From a virus: DNA of 26,541 nt. The stretch lies in the IMG/VR virus record IMGVR_UViG_3300043100_000036, positions 1-26,541 of that record, one strand, 5' to 3'. The position numbers and the translations under genes are program-made. The notes under the pieces were generated by a model that ran no database searches, was not told the DNA's origin, and saw only the letters and a list, made by a program, of their open reading frames with translations. This document shows, in pieces, positions 10,944 through 17,634 of this stretch. Numbering within the stretch: the first letter of the stretch is position 1; each line of letters begins with the position of its first letter.

Positions 10944-12743
10944 TTAGCCCTGCTGGAGCCGGTCGAATGCGGCGCGGGCCTGCTCCTGCATGCGCAGGGC
11001 GATCTCGCGCTGTTCGCCGGCGTCGGTGGAGGCCATGAGGCTCTTCTTGAGCTCGTGGCCCACCGGCGTTGCCGCTGATCCGTTGTCCATGCCGCGCACG
11101 TCGCGGGGGATGGCACCGTTGGTGAAGACCTTCGGCATGGCGGGCTGCTCTTCCAGCGCCTCGACCTTGGCCTTCAGCATCGCGACCTGTTCGGCTAGCT
11201 GAGCGCGGTCGTCGGCCTGCTTGGCGACGGTCTGCTCCTGTGTGGCCTGGTACTGGGCGAGTGCTGCTGCGACCGTGGCCTCGACGGTGCTCTTGAGCAC
11301 GTCTTCCGAGGGGGTGTCGGTGTTCTTGGTGACCGCGTCGTCGTCGGTGGGGACGGCGTCGGCGGGGGTTCCGGCCTCGGCCGGGGGTTCCGGCGTCAGG
11401 TCGGGGGTCTGGGGGGCGGCGGCATCTGCGGGGTCGTCCGTGGTGTCGTCGGCGCCGGTGTCGGCGTCTGCGCCGGACACGGGGGTGATCTTCGAGGGGT
11501 CGACGATGCCGACGAGCTTGCCGTTCGCGTTGAACACGGCGACCATCTCGGGCTTGTCGCCGTCGGCCTTGGCCATGTCGGTCACGGGCTGGCCTGCGAC
11601 CGGCTTCGGGTCGGCCTCCTGGACGCCCATCGCGGGCTCCTGGCCGGCTGCTGCGGTGACATCCTCCGACAGGGTCGGCTTGTCCATGTTCGGCTCCTCG
11701 TTGGCCGTCTTTGCGACCTCGTCGTCGGTGGTGGGTGCCTGGGGCAGGCTGGCGAGGACCTTCTGGAGGGACTCGACGGCGCCGCGGATGGCCTGCTCGT
11801 TGGCGGTGGACAGGACCCGGCCGGCCTTGCGGACCTGACCGAGGGCCTCGATGGTGCCCAGGGCATCGGAGTCGAAGCCGGCCATGGCCTTGCCGACCAT
11901 CTGCATGTCGTCGCAGCAGTCCGCCTCGGCCTGCTCGGCGACCGCGAACGGCGCCAGCACGCTGATGGCGTAGTCGATGGCGCAGCAGGCGTCCTGCAAG
12001 TCCCAGGCGTTCTCGGCGTCATCGGGGTCGGCGGAGGCAGCTTCCATGAGTTCGCGGTCGGCGAGCATGTCGATCGCGGCCTTGGCGCGGGCCAGGATGC
12101 TGGTCCACTTGCGGGCCGTTGCCGCGTCCACCGCTTCCCATGCCGGGGAGCCCGGGTCGGTGTCCATGCCCGGCGCGTCACCGTCCGCTTCGGCGAGCAT
12201 CACGGTCGGGTCCAGGGCGTCGTCGTCCATGTCCATCTCCTTGGCGACGTCGCCCTTCAGGCTGCCGTCCTTGTTCCAGTTGTCGGGGATCTCGGACGAG
12301 GCCCCCAGGCTGCGGGCGCGCCGGATGATGTGGGCGCGGATCGCGTCATGCGAGGAGCCGCCGCGGCCGACCGCGTGGATTGCCCGGTCGAGGTCTTCGC
12401 GGTCTTCGATGGGGTACGACTCGTTCTCCATGGCCGCGCCGCTGGCAGCCATGCGCTTGAGGTCGTCGGCGTCGTACTTCGCTTTGGCGACCGCGGCCTC
12501 GTGGATGAGCTTGAAGATCGCGGCCGGGCTGCCCGACATCGTCACCGTCTCCTCCGGTCGAGGCGCGGGCTCGGACTTGCCGATCAGGTCGCGGATCAGC
12601 CCCGGGTCCATCAGGCCCGCGCCGTCCTCGCGCTTGGCGATCAGGAACGTCATGCCGTTCGCGGCCTTGTCGACCAGGTCGACGCGGGGGATGTCGGCGT
12701 CTCGGAGCTCGGTGAACTCCTCGTCGGTTACGGGTGTGTCCAT
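10944..12743 (-). CDS. Scaffold-like head assembly protein with ChaB-like segment
   Basis: 599 residues; the ATG at 12743 shares its A with the stop of the upstream protease gene (TGATG). Residues 18-37 (IPRVDLVDKAANGMTFLIAK) resemble the segment that normally closes XkdF-type protease domains. Residues 109-156 (YPIEDREDLDRAIHAVGRGG ... AIRAHIIRRARSLGASSEIP ... DNW) match a ChaB/DUF6582-like unit frequent in phage head proteins. Residues about 395-480 are Asp/Pro/Ala-rich and disordered, and 485-540 form a coiled coil (LAEQVAMLKAKVEALEEQ) like scaffold cores. A Cys-containing helical region (DLQDACCAIDYAISVL, EADCCDDMQ) lies near 265-300. It probably templates capsid assembly and is cleaved by the neighbouring protease. 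That role is inferred from order and composition. Confidence 0.78.
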   Translation of the reverse strand: MDTPVTDEEFTELRDADIPRVDLVDKAANGMTFLIAKREDGAGLMDPGLIRDLIGKSEPAPRPEETVTMSGSPAAIFKLIHEAAVAKAKYDADDLKRMAASGAAMENESYPIEDREDLDRAIHAVGRGGSSHDAIRAHIIRRARSLGASSEIPDNWNKDGSLKGDVAKEMDMDDDALDPTVMLAEADGDAPGMDTDPGSPAWEAVDAATARKWTSILARAKAAIDMLADRELMEAASADPDDAENAWDLQDACCAIDYAISVLAPFAVAEQAEADCCDDMQMVGKAMAGFDSDALGTIEALGQVRKAGRVLSTANEQAIRGAVESLQKVLASLPQAPTTDDEVAKTANEEPNMDKPTLSEDVTAAAGQEPAMGVQEADPKPVAGQPVTDMAKADGDKPEMVAVFNANGKLVGIVDPSKITPVSGADADTGADDTTDDPADAAAPQTPDLTPEPPAEAGTPADAVPTDDDAVTKNTDTPSEDVLKSTVEATVAAALAQYQATQEQTVAKQADDRAQLAEQVAMLKAKVEALEEQPAMPKVFTNGAIPRDVRGMDNGSAATPVGHELKKSLMASTDAGEQREIALRMQEQARAAFDRLQQG

Positions 12744-13120
12744 CAGCTGCTCCGATGCGTGATACGGCGCGCGGAACCCTGGGGTGACCAGCCGGTGACG
12801 CGCCCGGACTTGTAGAGCTGCCAGGCGCGTTCGTCGAGGATTGCGCCGATCAGCCAGTCACCCTTGCGAACGACGACTCCATCGCCCAGGTCCCACGGCT
12901 CAGCTCGCCAGATGTAGGACTCGACGACAGTTGCGGCACCCACCGACTCGTCCGGGCCGTGGAACAGGCCGACCTGGGCGCCCTTCTGTAGGAAGCCCCA
13001 GGCGGCCTTCTCCAGTTCCACGTCGGTGAAGAAGTCCCGGCCGCCGTCCGCGCCGCGCTTGATACGTGGGTCGGGGCCCGCCTGGTAGGCAACGCCGAGG
13101 ACATAGCGCTGTTCGGGCAT
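12743..13120 (-). CDS. XkdF-like phage head maturation protease
   Basis: 125 residues from ATG 13120, with AGGAGG 5 bases upstream; the GTG at 13126 overlaps that site. The sequence follows the XkdF (Peptidase S78_2) pattern: FFTDVELEKAAWGFLQK at 30-46, the histidine of LFHGPDESVG (H54), the strand AATVVESYIWRAE, GDWLIGAILDERAWQLYKSG and the putative nucleophile in TGWSPQG (S112). These serine proteases trim scaffold and coat proteins during prohead maturation. It sits between the portal fusion and the scaffold gene, as expected. The domain is short, and its usual C-terminal segment appears at the start of the next gene, so the two may work as a split pair. Confidence 0.82.
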   Translation of the reverse strand: MPEQRYVLGVAYQAGPDPRIKRGADGGRDFFTDVELEKAAWGFLQKGAQVGLFHGPDESVGAATVVESYIWRAEPWDLGDGVVVRKGDWLIGAILDERAWQLYKSGRVTGWSPQGSARRITHRSS

Positions 13121-13129
13121 CGGCACCTC

Positions 13130-16100
13130 CTAGGCGGGCACGACGCTGCACCGGCAGCGCGGGTGAACAGGCGGATAGGCATTCCCGGACGGGTAAGCGG
13201 CACCGATGGGCCGCGGTCCGGCTCCGGCGTTGGCGATGCAGATCGGGCACGTGTTGACGCTCGGATCCAGCACCCACTGGCCCTGGGTGACTCCGGCCTG
13301 CCGGTAGCCGACGAGCGCGGCGAGGCCGGAGCTGCGGGTGATCTCGGTGACGGCGATGCCGAGCGCCGTGCTGAGGCTGCCGAGCGAGTCCCGCAGCAAC
13401 CTGCCGAGGACCAGTGCGGTCGCACCGGCCAGCAGGCCGGCCACGAGGATCCGGACGAGGTCGTCGTGCCGGGTGTCGGCCATGTGCTGGGCAGCACCGG
13501 GTGCGTCGTCCGCGAGCTGGCCGTAGTCCTCGTCGGCCTCGTTGTCGGCGATGGCGCGCAGGGCCTGGTCTGTGTCGCCGGGTGTCCAGCTGTCGAGCTT
13601 GAGGCGCTTCTTGCCGGCGGCGGCTGCCTTCGCGGACAGGAGCCCGATCAGGTAGCCGTCGGCGTGGACCTTGGGCAGGATCTTGGCCAGGGGCTTCGCG
13701 AGGTCGAGCTGTCGGGCCGCGAGCCACTCGGAGGTTTCGGCTGTTAGCCGCGCCTTGTCGAGCTTGCTGCTGTCGGCGGGGAGTTGGTGCTTCGCGAGGT
13801 AGTCCCGCGCGAGCTGTTCCGCCGCCGTGACGGTCAGCGTCGCCTTGAAGCTGCTGGCGATCTGCTCGGACCAGTAGTTGGCGGCAGCCTCGTCGTGCTG
13901 CCAGCCGGGCCAGTCGGCGGGCGCCCCCTTGGTGGGGGCGTCACCTTTTGGGTAAGCCGCCTTGGCGACTGACTCGCCACCGAGCGCCGCGAGTGCAGCG
14001 TCGATGTTGTCGAGCAGCTCCTGCCGCACGGCCGGGTTGCCGGGCAGTAGGTCTGGGTCCCACCAGGCCAGGGCCTCGGTGATGTCTCCATCGGGATCAT
14101 CCGGGTTGGGGATCTGGTCCCGGTCGCCGCAGATCGGCACGCAGCCCTCGGACGGGACCGTCCACACGATGCCCTGGTAGATCCCGTTCGGGCTCGTCCA
14201 GGTTCCGCCCTGTGCGCCGGGCGGCGGCATGCAGCCGGTCTCCTCGGCCCACTCCCGCCACGCACCCTGGAGCGGCGACTCCTCGCCCTCCAAGTGTCCC
14301 CCGGGGAACTCCCACATGCCTGACGCGGGATCCTCCGGGTCCAGGGCCCGCTGGAGCATCAGCACTCGGGCCGTGTCGGCCGCCTGCACCGCGAGGCCGG
14401 CGACCGCGACCTCGCCCGACGCCTTGCGGACAGCAAGCCGGCCGGAGTCGTTGAGGTTGTGCGCGGCGATCTTGTCTGTGGCGGTGAAGGTGAAGTCGCG
14501 CCAGCGCCGGTCGCGCCGACGAGCCTTCACGAAGCGCTTGAACGCCGCCAACTCGGCCGCCTTGGCGGCCTCCTGGGCATCGTCCGGTTCTTCGTCGTGC
14601 TGGTGGCCGGCGAGGTCGTAGCTGTAGATGCCGGTCGCGGAGGTGATACCCGCGGTCGGCATCGCCGGGCCACCGCCTTCGCTGTCCTTGGCCACGGGCT
14701 GCGGCGGGGGCGCGGGGGGCATTGCGGACGGCCCGAATTCCTCCTCCGCCAAGGGAGTGGTCTTGATCGGGGGGTTGGGGACAACGCCCTCCGCGCCGCC
14801 GAAGACGGCGTGAGGGAGCTGTGTGCCCGGCTCGGGCGCTGCGGTCTCCGGATCGATCTGACCCGCGAGGGCATACAGGGAAGCGAGCGGGATCGGCCCG
14901 GAGCGGGTGGTGGAGATGAAGCGGGGCATCGGCTGCCCATCGGGCTCGGGTAGCCCGTACCGCATCTCGCGGATGTCCGAGCCGCCGATGACGCCCAGCT
15001 CCAGGTAGATCTTGTCTGCCTGGGCCTGCTGCAACCGGTCCGCCTGCTCTTCGCCGAGGTCGAAGATGAAGTCCAGGGGCAGGCCGAGGTCGTTTTGCAG
15101 GAACCGGCTGAGGATCCCGGAGATGTGGCGCAGCAGTGGCAGGTCGCCGACGCGATGCTGTACATCGGCCTGGGATTCGCCGCTGCTCTTGTTGACGTTC
15201 TCGGTGAACCCGAGGTCGGCGGGTACAACGTGATAGGCCGCCGCGGTCTTCCGCATCAGGAACAGCGAGAAGCCGTCGGTGAAGTCCTTCTCGTTCGACC
15301 AGGCCAGCGTCGAGCCGCCGGGCATCCACTTGATCTGGTGCTTCGCTGCCTGATCCCCGTACATCGCGCCGTCCCAGTACTCCTGGAACTGCTCGATCTG
15401 GTCCGGCGACCAGTCCTCGGGCGCGGACGCGAACGCCTCGGGGATGTTGCCGTCCGTGAACCGCTGCAAAAAATAGGCCTGGAACCTGAGGTCGGTGTTG
15501 GCGTTGAGGAGGATCGTCTCCAGCGGCGCCTTGCCGTACGGGCTGTTCGGGACCTTCCGGAACGGCTGGTAGATCAAGTCGCCGACCGTCAGCCAGCCCC
15601 ACGGCAGCCCGTTCGCGTACTGCACATACGCGGGCGGCTCCGGATCGCCCGGCTGGGCAGCCGTGGGCGTGTTGCCCCAGTAGTCCAGCAGCGGCGCGAC
15701 CGTCGTACCGTCGACCACGCGCAGCCCGACGGCGTCACCACGACGGTTGCGCAGCCGGTAGAGGGTGCCGGCGTCGTAGGCGAGGATGTCGTACAGCCAG
15801 GAGGCGAGCCACGACGAGAACGGCTGATTGCGGTCCGGCATCGCCAGTACCTGCATGCCGATGTCGATGGCGTCCGAGACGTCCCCGCCGTAGCCCGACT
15901 TTGCTACCAGGGACCACTCCAGGGACCGGATCGAGTCGATCCGGTGCCAGATGCACATCTGCGCAACGTCGTAGGCTTCGATCAGTCCGCGGAGGGTCTC
16001 GAACGCGACGCGTTCGTGGATACGCGGCCGTGTCGAGATGTTCGTGCCGGGGACGAAGTTGTGCGACCGCGGGGTGCGGCTGTAGCCGTCGAACGGGGCG

Positions 16101-16222
16101 ATCGGCTCGCCGGGGGAGAACGGCGAGCTCGGTGTCATCTGCGAAGCGGCTTCGCCGGCCTGGAAGCTGGCCGGGACGGTGCCGCCGAACGTCTTGGAGA
16201 TGCGGCGGGGGTCGACCACCAT
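13130..16222 (-). CDS. Portal - Nudix hydrolase - MuF fusion protein
   Basis: 1030 residues in one uninterrupted frame from ATG 16222 (AGGGGG upstream, 14 bases after terminase). Residues about 60-460 are a phage portal protein (FVPGTNISTRPRIHERVAFE, LYRLRNRRGDAVGLRVVDGT, LIYQPFRKVPNSPYGKAPLE), the ring at the capsid vertex through which DNA passes. A Pro-rich linker (460-600) carries GITSATGIYSYDL at 525-537. Residues about 605-735 are a Nudix domain. Its box at 642-664 has all consensus positions: G, five residues, E, seven residues, REWAEETGC. Residues about 770-1030 form a MuF-like minor head domain ending in the usual zinc-like pair, CPIC at 992-995 and HPRCRC at 1020-1025. Portal-MuF fusions are known; a complete Nudix domain between them is unusual. 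Nudix enzymes hydrolyse nucleoside diphosphates linked to another group, but the substrate here is unknown. Confidence 0.9.
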   Translation of the reverse strand: MVVDPRRISKTFGGTVPASFQAGEAASQMTPSSPFSPGEPIAPFDGYSRTPRSHNFVPGTNISTRPRIHERVAFETLRGLIEAYDVAQMCIWHRIDSIRSLEWSLVAKSGYGGDVSDAIDIGMQVLAMPDRNQPFSSWLASWLYDILAYDAGTLYRLRNRRGDAVGLRVVDGTTVAPLLDYWGNTPTAAQPGDPEPPAYVQYANGLPWGWLTVGDLIYQPFRKVPNSPYGKAPLETILLNANTDLRFQAYFLQRFTDGNIPEAFASAPEDWSPDQIEQFQEYWDGAMYGDQAAKHQIKWMPGGSTLAWSNEKDFTDGFSLFLMRKTAAAYHVVPADLGFTENVNKSSGESQADVQHRVGDLPLLRHISGILSRFLQNDLGLPLDFIFDLGEEQADRLQQAQADKIYLELGVIGGSDIREMRYGLPEPDGQPMPRFISTTRSGPIPLASLYALAGQIDPETAAPEPGTQLPHAVFGGAEGVVPNPPIKTTPLAEEEFGPSAMPPAPPPQPVAKDSEGGGPAMPTAGITSATGIYSYDLAGHQHDEEPDDAQEAAKAAELAAFKRFVKARRRDRRWRDFTFTATDKIAAHNLNDSGRLAVRKASGEVAVAGLAVQAADTARVLMLQRALDPEDPASGMWEFPGGHLEGEESPLQGAWREWAEETGCMPPPGAQGGTWTSPNGIYQGIVWTVPSEGCVPICGDRDQIPNPDDPDGDITEALAWWDPDLLPGNPAVRQELLDNIDAALAALGGESVAKAAYPKGDAPTKGAPADWPGWQHDEAAANYWSEQIASSFKATLTVTAAEQLARDYLAKHQLPADSSKLDKARLTAETSEWLAARQLDLAKPLAKILPKVHADGYLIGLLSAKAAAAGKKRLKLDSWTPGDTDQALRAIADNEADEDYGQLADDAPGAAQHMADTRHDDLVRILVAGLLAGATALVLGRLLRDSLGSLSTALGIAVTEITRSSGLAALVGYRQAGVTQGQWVLDPSVNTCPICIANAGAGPRPIGAAYPSGNAYPPVHPRCRCSVVPA

Positions 16223-16236
16223 GAACCCCCTGTCGG

Positions 16237-17634
16237 TCAGCTTCGGGATCGGAAGTTGACGTCGCGGGCGGCCTGGAGGGCCGCGCCGGGGTCCTGCTCC
16301 TCGACGCCCGACTGGGGCTGCGGGGCGGGGGCGCCCTGGGTGGCGTTGGCCTCTTCGGCCTTGCGCCGGTAGTGCTCGATCCACAGGTGGGCGCTGAAGT
16401 TGTCGGTCAGCTCGGTCACCGCCCATACGAGCGCGTCCATGCGGTCGGGGCTCGTGCCGGACTGCGGTGTCCACGTAGTCATCTGGTCTTCGAGCTTCGG
16501 CAGCGGACCAACGTGATGGACACGCTGCTGCTCGTACAGGGCGGCGACGGGCTCGGCTCGCTGGACCTTGCCGCGGGACGCGGAGATGACCTTCACCGAA
16601 GCGCGCTTGTCGACCTGGAGGATCGTCGACTCGACCATGTCGCCGCCAAAGTTCCTCTCGGCCACGATCCGGTCGGCAGCGAATTCGTGGTAGGCCGCGA
16701 CCGCGCGCGACGCCCAGCCGTGAGGCGACATCGAGCAGGACCGGTCCGCGAGGACGTACAGCTCCCCATCGACACCCAGGCCTGCCACGACAATGCCCTG
16801 CTCGTCGCTGTTCGGGCCGGTGCCGCCGGACGGGTCCACGGCGACGACGATCCGTTGCAGGTCCGGTGCTGACTGGACGCGGCCCTCGTCGAGGTCGTTG
16901 ATGGTCCACAGTGCGCCCTCGACGTCATCGAGGAGTTCGCCGAGGAGTTCCTGGCGCCCGATGCGCGTGCCCTCGTAGGTCGCGAGGACCTGCTCGCGGA
17001 ACGAGGGGGCGAGGTTGGCGAGGTTGTCGTAGGTGGAGCCCCGGGTCACCACGGTGGAGGGGCGTCCGAGGACGGTGCGGGTCAGCGCATTGGGCTTGGG
17101 GGTGGTCGTGACCAGGCATCGGGGCGCGGTGCCGAGGCGCAGCCCGAGCATGAGGTTGTTCCATGCCGTGTCGAGGACGTCGCCCTTTGGGGCGTCGGTC
17201 CAGGCGGCGGCTTCGTCGGCCCAGGCGAAGTGGTGCTGAGGGCCTCGTAGTTGGGAGGGGACTTCAGCGGAGTAGGTCTGTGCGACGGAGCCGTTCGGCC
17301 AGGTGAGGCGCCGTTTCGTCGACTGGTAGATCGGCGTGCTGTCGTGGGCGACGGCGAGGATTCCCGACTCGCCTTCGATCATGACGTCGCGGACGTCTGC
17401 CGGTGTGCGGCCGACCAGGGCGATGCGGCAGCCGGGGTGGGTGGTGGCCTGCTCCTGGACCCATTCGGCGGCGGACCGGGTTTTGCCGCATCCGCGTCCG
17501 GCGATGAACGCCCAGGTGAGCCAGGAGCCGTCGGGCGGCAGCTGCTCGGGGCGGGCGATCTTCCGCCAGGGGAGCGGCCGAATGGTCTCGAAGTCGCGGG
17601 CCGCGAATTCGACCCAGTCCGGGGAAACGGTCAC
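16237..17634 (-). CDS. Terminase large subunit
   Basis: 465 residues from GTG 17634, with GGGAGG upstream. It is the ATPase-nuclease motor that cuts concatemeric phage DNA and pumps it through the portal. Walker A is GRGCGKT at 46-52. Walker B is HHFAWADEA at 134-142 (D140, E141). A TTTPK motif at 176-180 is the expected coupling motif. The RNase H-like nuclease half begins at AVDPSGG (D267), continues at VAERNFGGD (E327) and ends at TSPDRMDAL (D397, D400), so the acidic cluster is intact. The length is normal for the family. It is followed closely by the portal fusion and preceded by the small subunit 15 bases upstream. Confidence 0.95.
   Translation of the reverse strand: MTVSPDWVEFAARDFETIRPLPWRKIARPEQLPPDGSWLTWAFIAGRGCGKTRSAAEWVQEQATTHPGCRIALVGRTPADVRDVMIEGESGILAVAHDSTPIYQSTKRRLTWPNGSVAQTYSAEVPSQLRGPQHHFAWADEAAAWTDAPKGDVLDTAWNNLMLGLRLGTAPRCLVTTTPKPNALTRTVLGRPSTVVTRGSTYDNLANLAPSFREQVLATYEGTRIGRQELLGELLDDVEGALWTINDLDEGRVQSAPDLQRIVVAVDPSGGTGPNSDEQGIVVAGLGVDGELYVLADRSCSMSPHGWASRAVAAYHEFAADRIVAERNFGGDMVESTILQVDKRASVKVISASRGKVQRAEPVAALYEQQRVHHVGPLPKLEDQMTTWTPQSGTSPDRMDALVWAVTELTDNFSAHLWIEHYRRKAEEANATQGAPAPQPQSGVEEQDPGAALQAARDVNFRSRS

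What the first reader, a model, noticed from the sequence alone, without database searches (positions are those of the whole stretch)
14018..14410. Complete Nudix hydrolase domain embedded between portal and MuF domains
A single uninterrupted 1030-residue frame contains a portal protein, a Nudix domain (about residues 605-735, box at 642-664 with every consensus position including REWAEETG) and a MuF-like minor head domain with intact CPIC and HPRCRC ends. The portal sits at the DNA entry vertex, and the MuF part is normally inside the head. A Nudix enzyme tethered there could be delivered with DNA or act on nucleotides, NAD-like dinucleotides, capped RNA or nucleotide second messengers. It could be an injected counter-defence activity or a packaging-associated housekeeping enzyme. 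I do not know how widespread the fusion is.
Basis: partly seen in the sequence, partly recalled or inferred. Interest (0 to 1): 0.88.

Follow-up and report, generated by a model that had tools for sequence, protein, structure and literature searches.

The report
Swappable nucleotide-cutting enzyme in phage portal
A soil phage has built a nucleotide-cutting (Nudix) enzyme into the head protein through which its DNA enters, and related phages carry an unrelated nucleotide-cutting enzyme, both, or none in exactly the same place, which suggests an exchangeable cargo carried in the virus particle rather than a structural part.

Summary
One minus-strand frame (16222-13130, 1030 aa) encodes portal, Nudix and MuF domains in that order. 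It is not an assembly artefact: 54 non-redundant loci carry it as one frame, among them cultured Arthrobacter phages Sonali and Mufasa8 and Streptomyces/Kitasatospora genomes. The Nudix catalytic residues are invariant in 50 sequences, and in the compared pairs this domain is on the whole the slowest-evolving part of the protein.

Portal-Nudix, MuF-Nudix and protease-Nudix fusions, with the idea that they are packaged and injected, were published in 2022 (PMC9503650).

What I did not find described is that the Nudix sits in an exchange slot. Between the same conserved flanks, relatives carry an unrelated 2H phosphoesterase (both HxT motifs intact), Nudix plus 2H, or nothing. Well-supported branches of the portal tree force at least 12 Nudix/2H changes. 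Several portal pairs are homologous at DNA level on both sides of a swapped slot.

Best explanation: an interchangeable virion-packaged nucleotide hydrolase, probably delivered to blunt nucleotide or NAD-derived host signals. Enzyme constraint and swapping are shown. Packaging, injection and substrate are inferred. I could not confirm the published T4-NudE-like label for this Nudix.

The parts
16237..17634 (-). terminase large subunit (upstream neighbour)
   Evidence: PHROGs terminase large subunit E 1.4e-34
13130..16222 (-). portal-Nudix-MuF fusion ORF, 1030 aa
   Evidence: translation; Pfam domains; PHROGs portal/MutT/minor head
14963..15964 (-). Phage_portal domain (residues 87-420)
   Evidence: Pfam PF04860 E 1.8e-15; phrog_2662 portal E 2.3e-62
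14423..14902 (-). left border of the slot (residues 441-600), ending FKRFVKARRRDRRWRDF...NLNDSGRLAVRK, conserved whatever cargo follows
   Evidence: link1 profile present in Nudix, 2H and empty-slot homologues
14018..14410 (-). Nudix hydrolase domain = slot cargo (residues 605-735)
   Evidence: Pfam PF00293 E 1.1e-12; model pLDDT 85 matching PDB Nudix enzymes; invariant catalytic residues
14231..14299 (-). Nudix box GHLEGEESPLQGAWREWAEETGC (residues 642-664)
   Evidence: sequence; invariant G/E/R/E/E/E positions in 50 relatives
13553..13981 (-). right border of the slot / linker (residues 748-890), with AKAA...DWPGWQHDEAAANYW
   Evidence: link2 profile present in Nudix, 2H and empty-slot homologues
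13142..13444 (-). MuF-like minor head domain (residues 927-1027) with CPIC and HPRCRC
   Evidence: Pfam PF04233 weak E 0.022; PHROGs minor head 2.7e-12; NCBIfam SPP1 gp7 2.5e-4
12743..13126 (-). downstream head maturation protease (127 aa), candidate processor of the fusion
   Evidence: phrog_3017 head maturation protease E 1.6e-17; processing itself is inference

Best explanation
The Nudix domain is a catalytically constrained cargo enzyme held in an exchangeable slot between the portal and MuF parts of one head protein. SHOWN: the fusion is real and widespread, the active site is invariant, and the slot is repeatedly refilled with an unrelated 2H phosphoesterase, both enzymes, or nothing. 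INFERRED: because portal and MuF are assembled into the procapsid, up to about 12 enzyme copies ride inside the virion near the DNA exit. They are freed with or without help from the adjacent head maturation protease, enter the host with the DNA, and hydrolyse nucleotide-type host molecules at the start of infection. The likeliest targets are immune second messengers or NAD/ADP-ribose derivatives.
For: Same three-domain order in 54 non-redundant loci and in cultured Arthrobacter phages Sonali and Mufasa8. Invariant Nudix catalytic residues and a Nudix fold. Nei-Gojobori dN against nine close relatives: Nudix 0.10-0.19, portal 0.11-0.26, MuF 0.15-0.66. The same slot holds a 2H phosphoesterase with both HxT motifs invariant, whose fold matches drCPDase and LigT, with weaker matches to viral 2',5'-PDE and anti-CBASS Acb1. 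Nudix and 2H on one protein in L083, L129, L146-148, L105, L111, L097 and L132. Empty slots in L049/L063 and L241. At least 12 Nudix/2H changes forced by starred branches of a 60-row portal tree, 16 in a 109-row tree. DNA homology flanks the swapped slot in L023/L053, L011/L052 and L266/L040. Nudix also rides on other head proteins: S78 protease in Gilgamesh gp52 and MuF in Pam4_13. The same 2H family is fused to ADP-ribosyltransferases in L119, L091 and L134. Prior independent proposal of packaging and injection (PMC9503650, PMC5512222).
Against: No virion proteomics, injection assay or enzyme assay exists here. A 12-copy portal ring stays in the capsid, so delivery needs cleavage or local action. 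In several relatives the enzyme stays on the portal half after gene splitting (e.g. L017, L038, L048), so it is not always tied to MuF. NCBIfam's best, far sub-threshold hits are MutT/NTP-pyrophosphatase types, which fits dNTP sanitation as well as signal destruction. Similarity to the ADP-ribose-active T4 NudE is essentially the Nudix box region (34% over 61 aa).
Confidence: 0.52

Rival explanations
1. RNA-end or cap processing: the packaged Nudix removes NAD or NDP-type 5' caps and the 2H opens 2',3'-cyclic phosphate ends, so the cargo acts on host or damaged RNA (decapping, tRNA repair) right after entry rather than on small messengers.
For: 2H fold nearest to 2',3'-cyclic phosphodiesterase and LigT/ThpR; NCBIfam TIGR02258 RNA 2',3'-cyclic phosphodiesterase weak hit; some remote PHROGs hits of 2H proteins are 'RNA ligase' families; Nudix and 2H are linked to RNA repair in other phages (PMC9503650).
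Against: No RNA ligase, kinase or RNA-binding module seen in the fused slot; PMC5512222 states that polyvalent-type 2H domains were never found with RNA ligases.
Confidence: 0.18
2. House-cleaning or packaging enzyme: a MutT-type Nudix tethered at the packaging vertex destroys damaged or inhibitory (d)NTPs in the producing cell; nothing is injected.
For: Closest named profiles are MutT/NudG/8-oxo-dGTPase types; top fold matches include MutT, MutT2 and NUDT15.
Against: All named-profile hits are far below cut-off. Replacement by a 2H phosphoesterase, which does not cleave NTPs in known examples, and empty slots argue against a constant packaging role.
Confidence: 0.14
3. Structural or ligand-sensing role: the folded domain merely spaces the portal and MuF or senses a nucleotide during assembly; catalysis is irrelevant.
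For: It lies in a structural protein and is strongly conserved.
Against: Catalytic Glu/Arg residues invariant; the slot can be empty or hold an unrelated fold between unchanged flanks; the 2H active-site HxT pairs are also invariant.
Confidence: 0.07
4. Assembly or annotation artefact joining separate genes.
For: The window is a virus-record fragment; some relatives do have the gene split after the Nudix.
Against: Identical uninterrupted architecture in cultured phages and in isolate genomes, e.g. Kitasatospora mediocidica and Streptomyces sp..
Confidence: 0.01

Closest known systems
Arthrobacter phage Sonali gp3 (QAY16116.1) / Mufasa8 gp3 (YP_009885083.1)
   Same: Portal-NUDIX-MuF in one protein between terminase and head protease/capsid genes; annotated 'portal and MuF-like fusion protein' / 'MutT/NUDIX hydrolase'.
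   Different: About 45-47% identity over 63-65% coverage; the left slot flank is not recognised by my link1 profile there.
Phage Nudix domains fused to MuF, portal or head serine peptidase (PMC9503650, section 3.5.2)
   Same: Same kind of fusion, same proposed logic (packaged and injected).
   Different: That paper assigns such domains to a T4 NudE-like clade; direct comparison here shows only Nudix-box-region similarity to T4 NudE. I found no description there of a Nudix/2H exchange slot (text searched, figures not held).
2H phosphoesterases fused to MuF/portal (PMC5512222, PMC9503650 section 3.4.5)
   Same: Same enzyme class on the same carrier proteins.
   Different: Here Nudix and 2H are shown to alternate and combine in one slot of one orthologous protein.
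MuF-domain effector fusions / polyvalent proteins (T4 Alt-like ARTs, MuF-ART, PBECR etc.)
   Same: Head-packaged protein carrying variable enzymatic cargo.
   Different: Cargo here is internal, between portal and MuF, rather than a C-terminal effector; gene-level swapping of two nucleotide hydrolases.
Anti-CBASS Acb1 and viral 2',5'-PDEs (2H enzymes that destroy nucleotide immune signals)
   Same: The 2H alternative shares fold and HxT pairs.
   Different: Only weak fold similarity to Acb1 (Foldseek E 0.01-0.02) and sub-threshold Pfam Acb1 (E 0.25); not a member on this evidence.

Membership tests
Nudix hydrolase superfamily | Nudix box Gx5Ex7REUxEExGU with intact catalytic Glu/Arg | tested here: met
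   All G/E/R positions present in the window; the catalytic Glu/Arg invariant in 50 relatives; U positions are W and C in the window
Nudix hydrolase superfamily | Nudix fold | tested here: met
   AlphaFold2 pLDDT 85.2; best PDB matches are Nudix hydrolases
Nudix hydrolase superfamily | metal-dependent NDP-X hydrolysis | not testable with these tools
   needs an enzyme assay
T4 NudE / ADP-ribose-active Nudix clade | specific sequence kinship beyond the Nudix box | tested here: inconclusive
   34% over 61 aa around the box only; no full-length alignment
HK97/SPP1-type portal protein | Phage_portal domain over cut-off next to TerL | tested here: met
   PF04860 57.4 bits vs 39.1; adjacent terminase
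MuF / SPP1 gp7 minor head protein | MuF domain | tested here: met
   weak Pfam in window (E 0.022), PHROGs 2.7e-12, NCBIfam gp7 2.5e-4, homologues over the Pfam cut-off
2H phosphoesterase (slot alternative, not the window) | two HxT motifs and 2H fold | tested here: met
   H42xT44 and H127xT129 invariant; PF13563 over cut-off in L040, L052, L053, L058, L062; fold matches drCPDase/LigT
Virion-injected counter-defence effectors | protein present in virion and transferred to host | not testable with these tools
   inferred from fusion to head proteins only

The most novel reading that the evidence does not exclude
The portal-MuF protein is a dedicated cargo cassette. Actinophages swap non-homologous nucleotide hydrolases (Nudix, 2H, or both in series) in and out of one slot in response to changing host nucleotide- or NAD-signalling defences, delivering about a dozen enzyme copies with each genome. 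This would be a pre-loaded, modular anti-signalling system in siphoviruses acting before any phage gene is expressed.
Probability: 0.3. Interest if true: 0.82.

Novelty: new variant of a known kind. Interest (0 to 1): 0.55.

Why it matters
Fusions of Nudix or 2H enzymes to head proteins had been catalogued as isolated architectures. Showing that the two alternate, combine or vanish at one precise site of an otherwise orthologous portal protein turns a guilt-by-association idea into a testable one. It argues that the slot carries a selected, dispensable enzymatic cargo, and that the two enzymes address the same or linked nucleotide substrates. Sonali and Mufasa8 are cultured Arthrobacter phages with the same architecture, so packaging, injection and substrate can be tested directly.

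Tried and rejected
Rejected: assembly or frameshift artefact (intact in isolate genomes); chance match (E 1e-12); degenerate Nudix (invariant catalytic residues, low dN).

Led nowhere: PDB sequence search with the 2H profile (0 hits); NCBIfam for substrate assignment (all hits far below cut-offs); comparison with T4 NudE (box-region similarity only); literature searches for a tested Nudix-head fusion (only the 2017/2021/2022 comparative papers).

The 109-row portal tree is a quick one and its loci were gathered partly with Nudix and 2H queries, so frequencies of cargo types are not prevalence estimates. The swaps were rechecked on a careful 60-row tree, which I had thinned of Nudix-only rows for speed; that thinning does not create changes but makes its shuffle test uninformative. 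In the 109-row table L152 is labelled 'none' although it holds a truncated 2H at the contig end; this does not affect the 60-row result.

Full report
OBSERVATION. The flagged stretch 14018-14410 is residues 605-735 of a 1030-aa minus-strand protein (16222-13130). It follows a terminase large subunit (16237-17634) and precedes a small head maturation protease (12743-13126). Pfam finds Phage_portal (1.8e-15), NUDIX (1.1e-12) and a weak MuF (0.022). PHROGs finds portal (2.3e-62), MutT/NUDIX (7.3e-14) and minor head (2.7e-12). The window is itself a 26.5-kb virus record with a long tape-measure gene and a minor tail gene, so a long-tailed phage.

REALITY OF THE FUSION. 69 IMG/VR loci match the protein. 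After pooling 280 loci, 54 non-redundant proteins have portal-Nudix-MuF in one frame. The architecture is also in Arthrobacter phages Sonali and Mufasa8 and in Streptomyces, Kitasatospora and Catenulispora genome records. It is therefore neither a frameshift nor an assembly error.

IS THE NUDIX DOMAIN FUNCTIONAL? In 50 sequences, including three different carrier proteins, G42, E48, R56, E57, E60 and E61 are invariant. The model (pLDDT 85.2) retrieves Nudix hydrolases from the PDB. Against nine close relatives, Nudix dN is 0.10-0.19 with dN/dS 0.12-0.25; the portal gives dN 0.11-0.26 and MuF 0.15-0.66. In the compared pairs the Nudix is on the whole the most constrained part, although in some very close pairs of other lineages the portal is more so. 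A strictly structural spacer would not be expected to keep its catalytic set.

THE SLOT. Some homologues lacked Nudix but had about 160 unknown residues in the same place. Those residues carry two HxT motifs and are a 2H phosphoesterase by Pfam (PF13563 over cut-off in L040, L052, L053, L058 and L062). Both HxT pairs are invariant in the alignment. The model (pLDDT 82.7) matches drCPDase and LigT, then a viral RNase L antagonist, Usb1 and, weakly, Acb1. The left flank (AFRRFxKARRRxGxWRDFEF...LNxxGRxAVRKA) and right flank (AKAA...WPGWxxDxxAAxHWA) are recognisably the same whether the slot holds Nudix, 2H or nothing. L049/L063 and L241 have an empty slot. L083, L129 and L146-148 hold Nudix followed by 2H; L105, L111, L097 and L132 show other arrangements.

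EXCHANGE IS FREQUENT. On a portal-only tree of 109 rows, cargo labels need 24 changes, and supported branches force at least 16 changes of the Nudix label. On a careful 60-row tree of the close family, 14 changes are needed, at least 12 forced by starred branches, and the 5-95% bootstrap range is 14-14. DNA-level pairs carry different enzymes between homologous flanks: L023 (Nudix)/L053 (2H) with 85% identity up to the left border and 81% after the right; L011 (Nudix)/L052 (2H) with 80% and 81%; L266 (Nudix)/L040 (2H) with 83% and 71%. A dozen independent assembly chimeras with the same borders are not credible. Because loci were collected partly with Nudix and 2H queries, these numbers show exchange, not prevalence.

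OTHER CARRIERS. Related Nudix domains (45-55% identity) sit in Streptomyces phage Gilgamesh gp52 behind an S78 prohead protease, directly upstream of the major capsid gene, and in Pseudanabaena phage Pam4_13 behind a MuF domain. In L130 the portal-MuF-2H gene is followed by a separate Nudix gene. 2H domains of this family are fused to ADP-ribosyltransferase domains in L119 (ADPrib_exo_Tox), L091 and L134 (Arr-ms). Several carriers are head components, and the company the enzymes keep points to nucleotide or ADP-ribose chemistry.

PRIOR KNOWLEDGE. PMC9503650 (2022) proposed that phage Nudix domains fused to MuF, portal and head peptidases are packaged and injected. PMC5512222 (2017) reported 2H fused to MuF or portal with a related proposal. 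I found no text describing one slot alternating between the two; figures and supplements were not available, so I cannot exclude that it is drawn there. The T4-NudE-like assignment is not confirmed for this domain, and the named profiles closest to it are MutT-type but far sub-threshold. The substrate is open. A 2026 preprint (PMC13232231) states that no enzyme degrading 2'/3'-cADPR was known before RyDEP, so that substrate is only one candidate.

MECHANISM. Shown: real fusion, conserved active site, repeated exchange with 2H, and dispensability of the slot contents. Inferred from established portal/MuF biology: location inside the head and about 12 copies per virion. Inferred with moderate confidence: release and entry with the DNA. 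Inferred with low confidence: the identity of the target (nucleotide second messenger, NAD/ADP-ribose derivative or RNA end).

VERDICT. A genuine and well-supported example of a published kind of fusion, with an apparently undescribed exchange slot that makes the cargo hypothesis testable in cultured phages.

Noticed in passing
L017, L031, L034, L036, L038, L045, L046, L048: The fusion gene is split after or within the Nudix domain into portal-Nudix and link2-MuF ORFs in different frames, in several lineages; real fission, programmed frameshift or sequencing error not resolved.
   Followed up: partly
L119:4141-6744; L091:5488-6618; L134:3472-6486: 2H phosphoesterase of the same family fused to ADP-ribosyltransferase domains (ADPrib_exo_Tox, Arr-ms), in two cases with GNAT or ParB-like modules: polyvalent-type proteins in these phages.
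   Followed up: partly
L109 residues 673-802 and L213 residues 659-805: An additional ~130-145 aa module of unknown kind precedes the swapped enzyme in both a 2H and a Nudix carrier; L193 and L218 have a similar-sized extra stretch before the Nudix.
   Followed up: no
L062, L067, L113, L129, L136: Large insertions, some intein-like (LAGLIDADG in L062, Hint in L113), interrupt the portal domain or the fusion.
   Followed up: no
L015, L055, L032: The C-terminal MuF end is replaced by a shorter or different Cys-rich ending soon after the Nudix, so the MuF half may be exchangeable too.
   Followed up: no
L282:3779-4891 (Arthrobacter phage Edmundo gp18 and Laroye/Salgado relatives): A weak relative of the 2H domain lies in a gene between MuF and major capsid, variously annotated aldolase, RNA ligase or capsid maturation protease.
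   Followed up: partly
window:8285-9322 (-): 345-aa protein in the head/tail region with two separate HNH endonuclease stretches.
   Followed up: no
window:18507-20630 (-) and window:24805-26487 (-): A 707-aa pectin-lyase-like protein upstream of the terminase and a 560-aa phage RNA-binding-protein family member at the window end.
   Followed up: no
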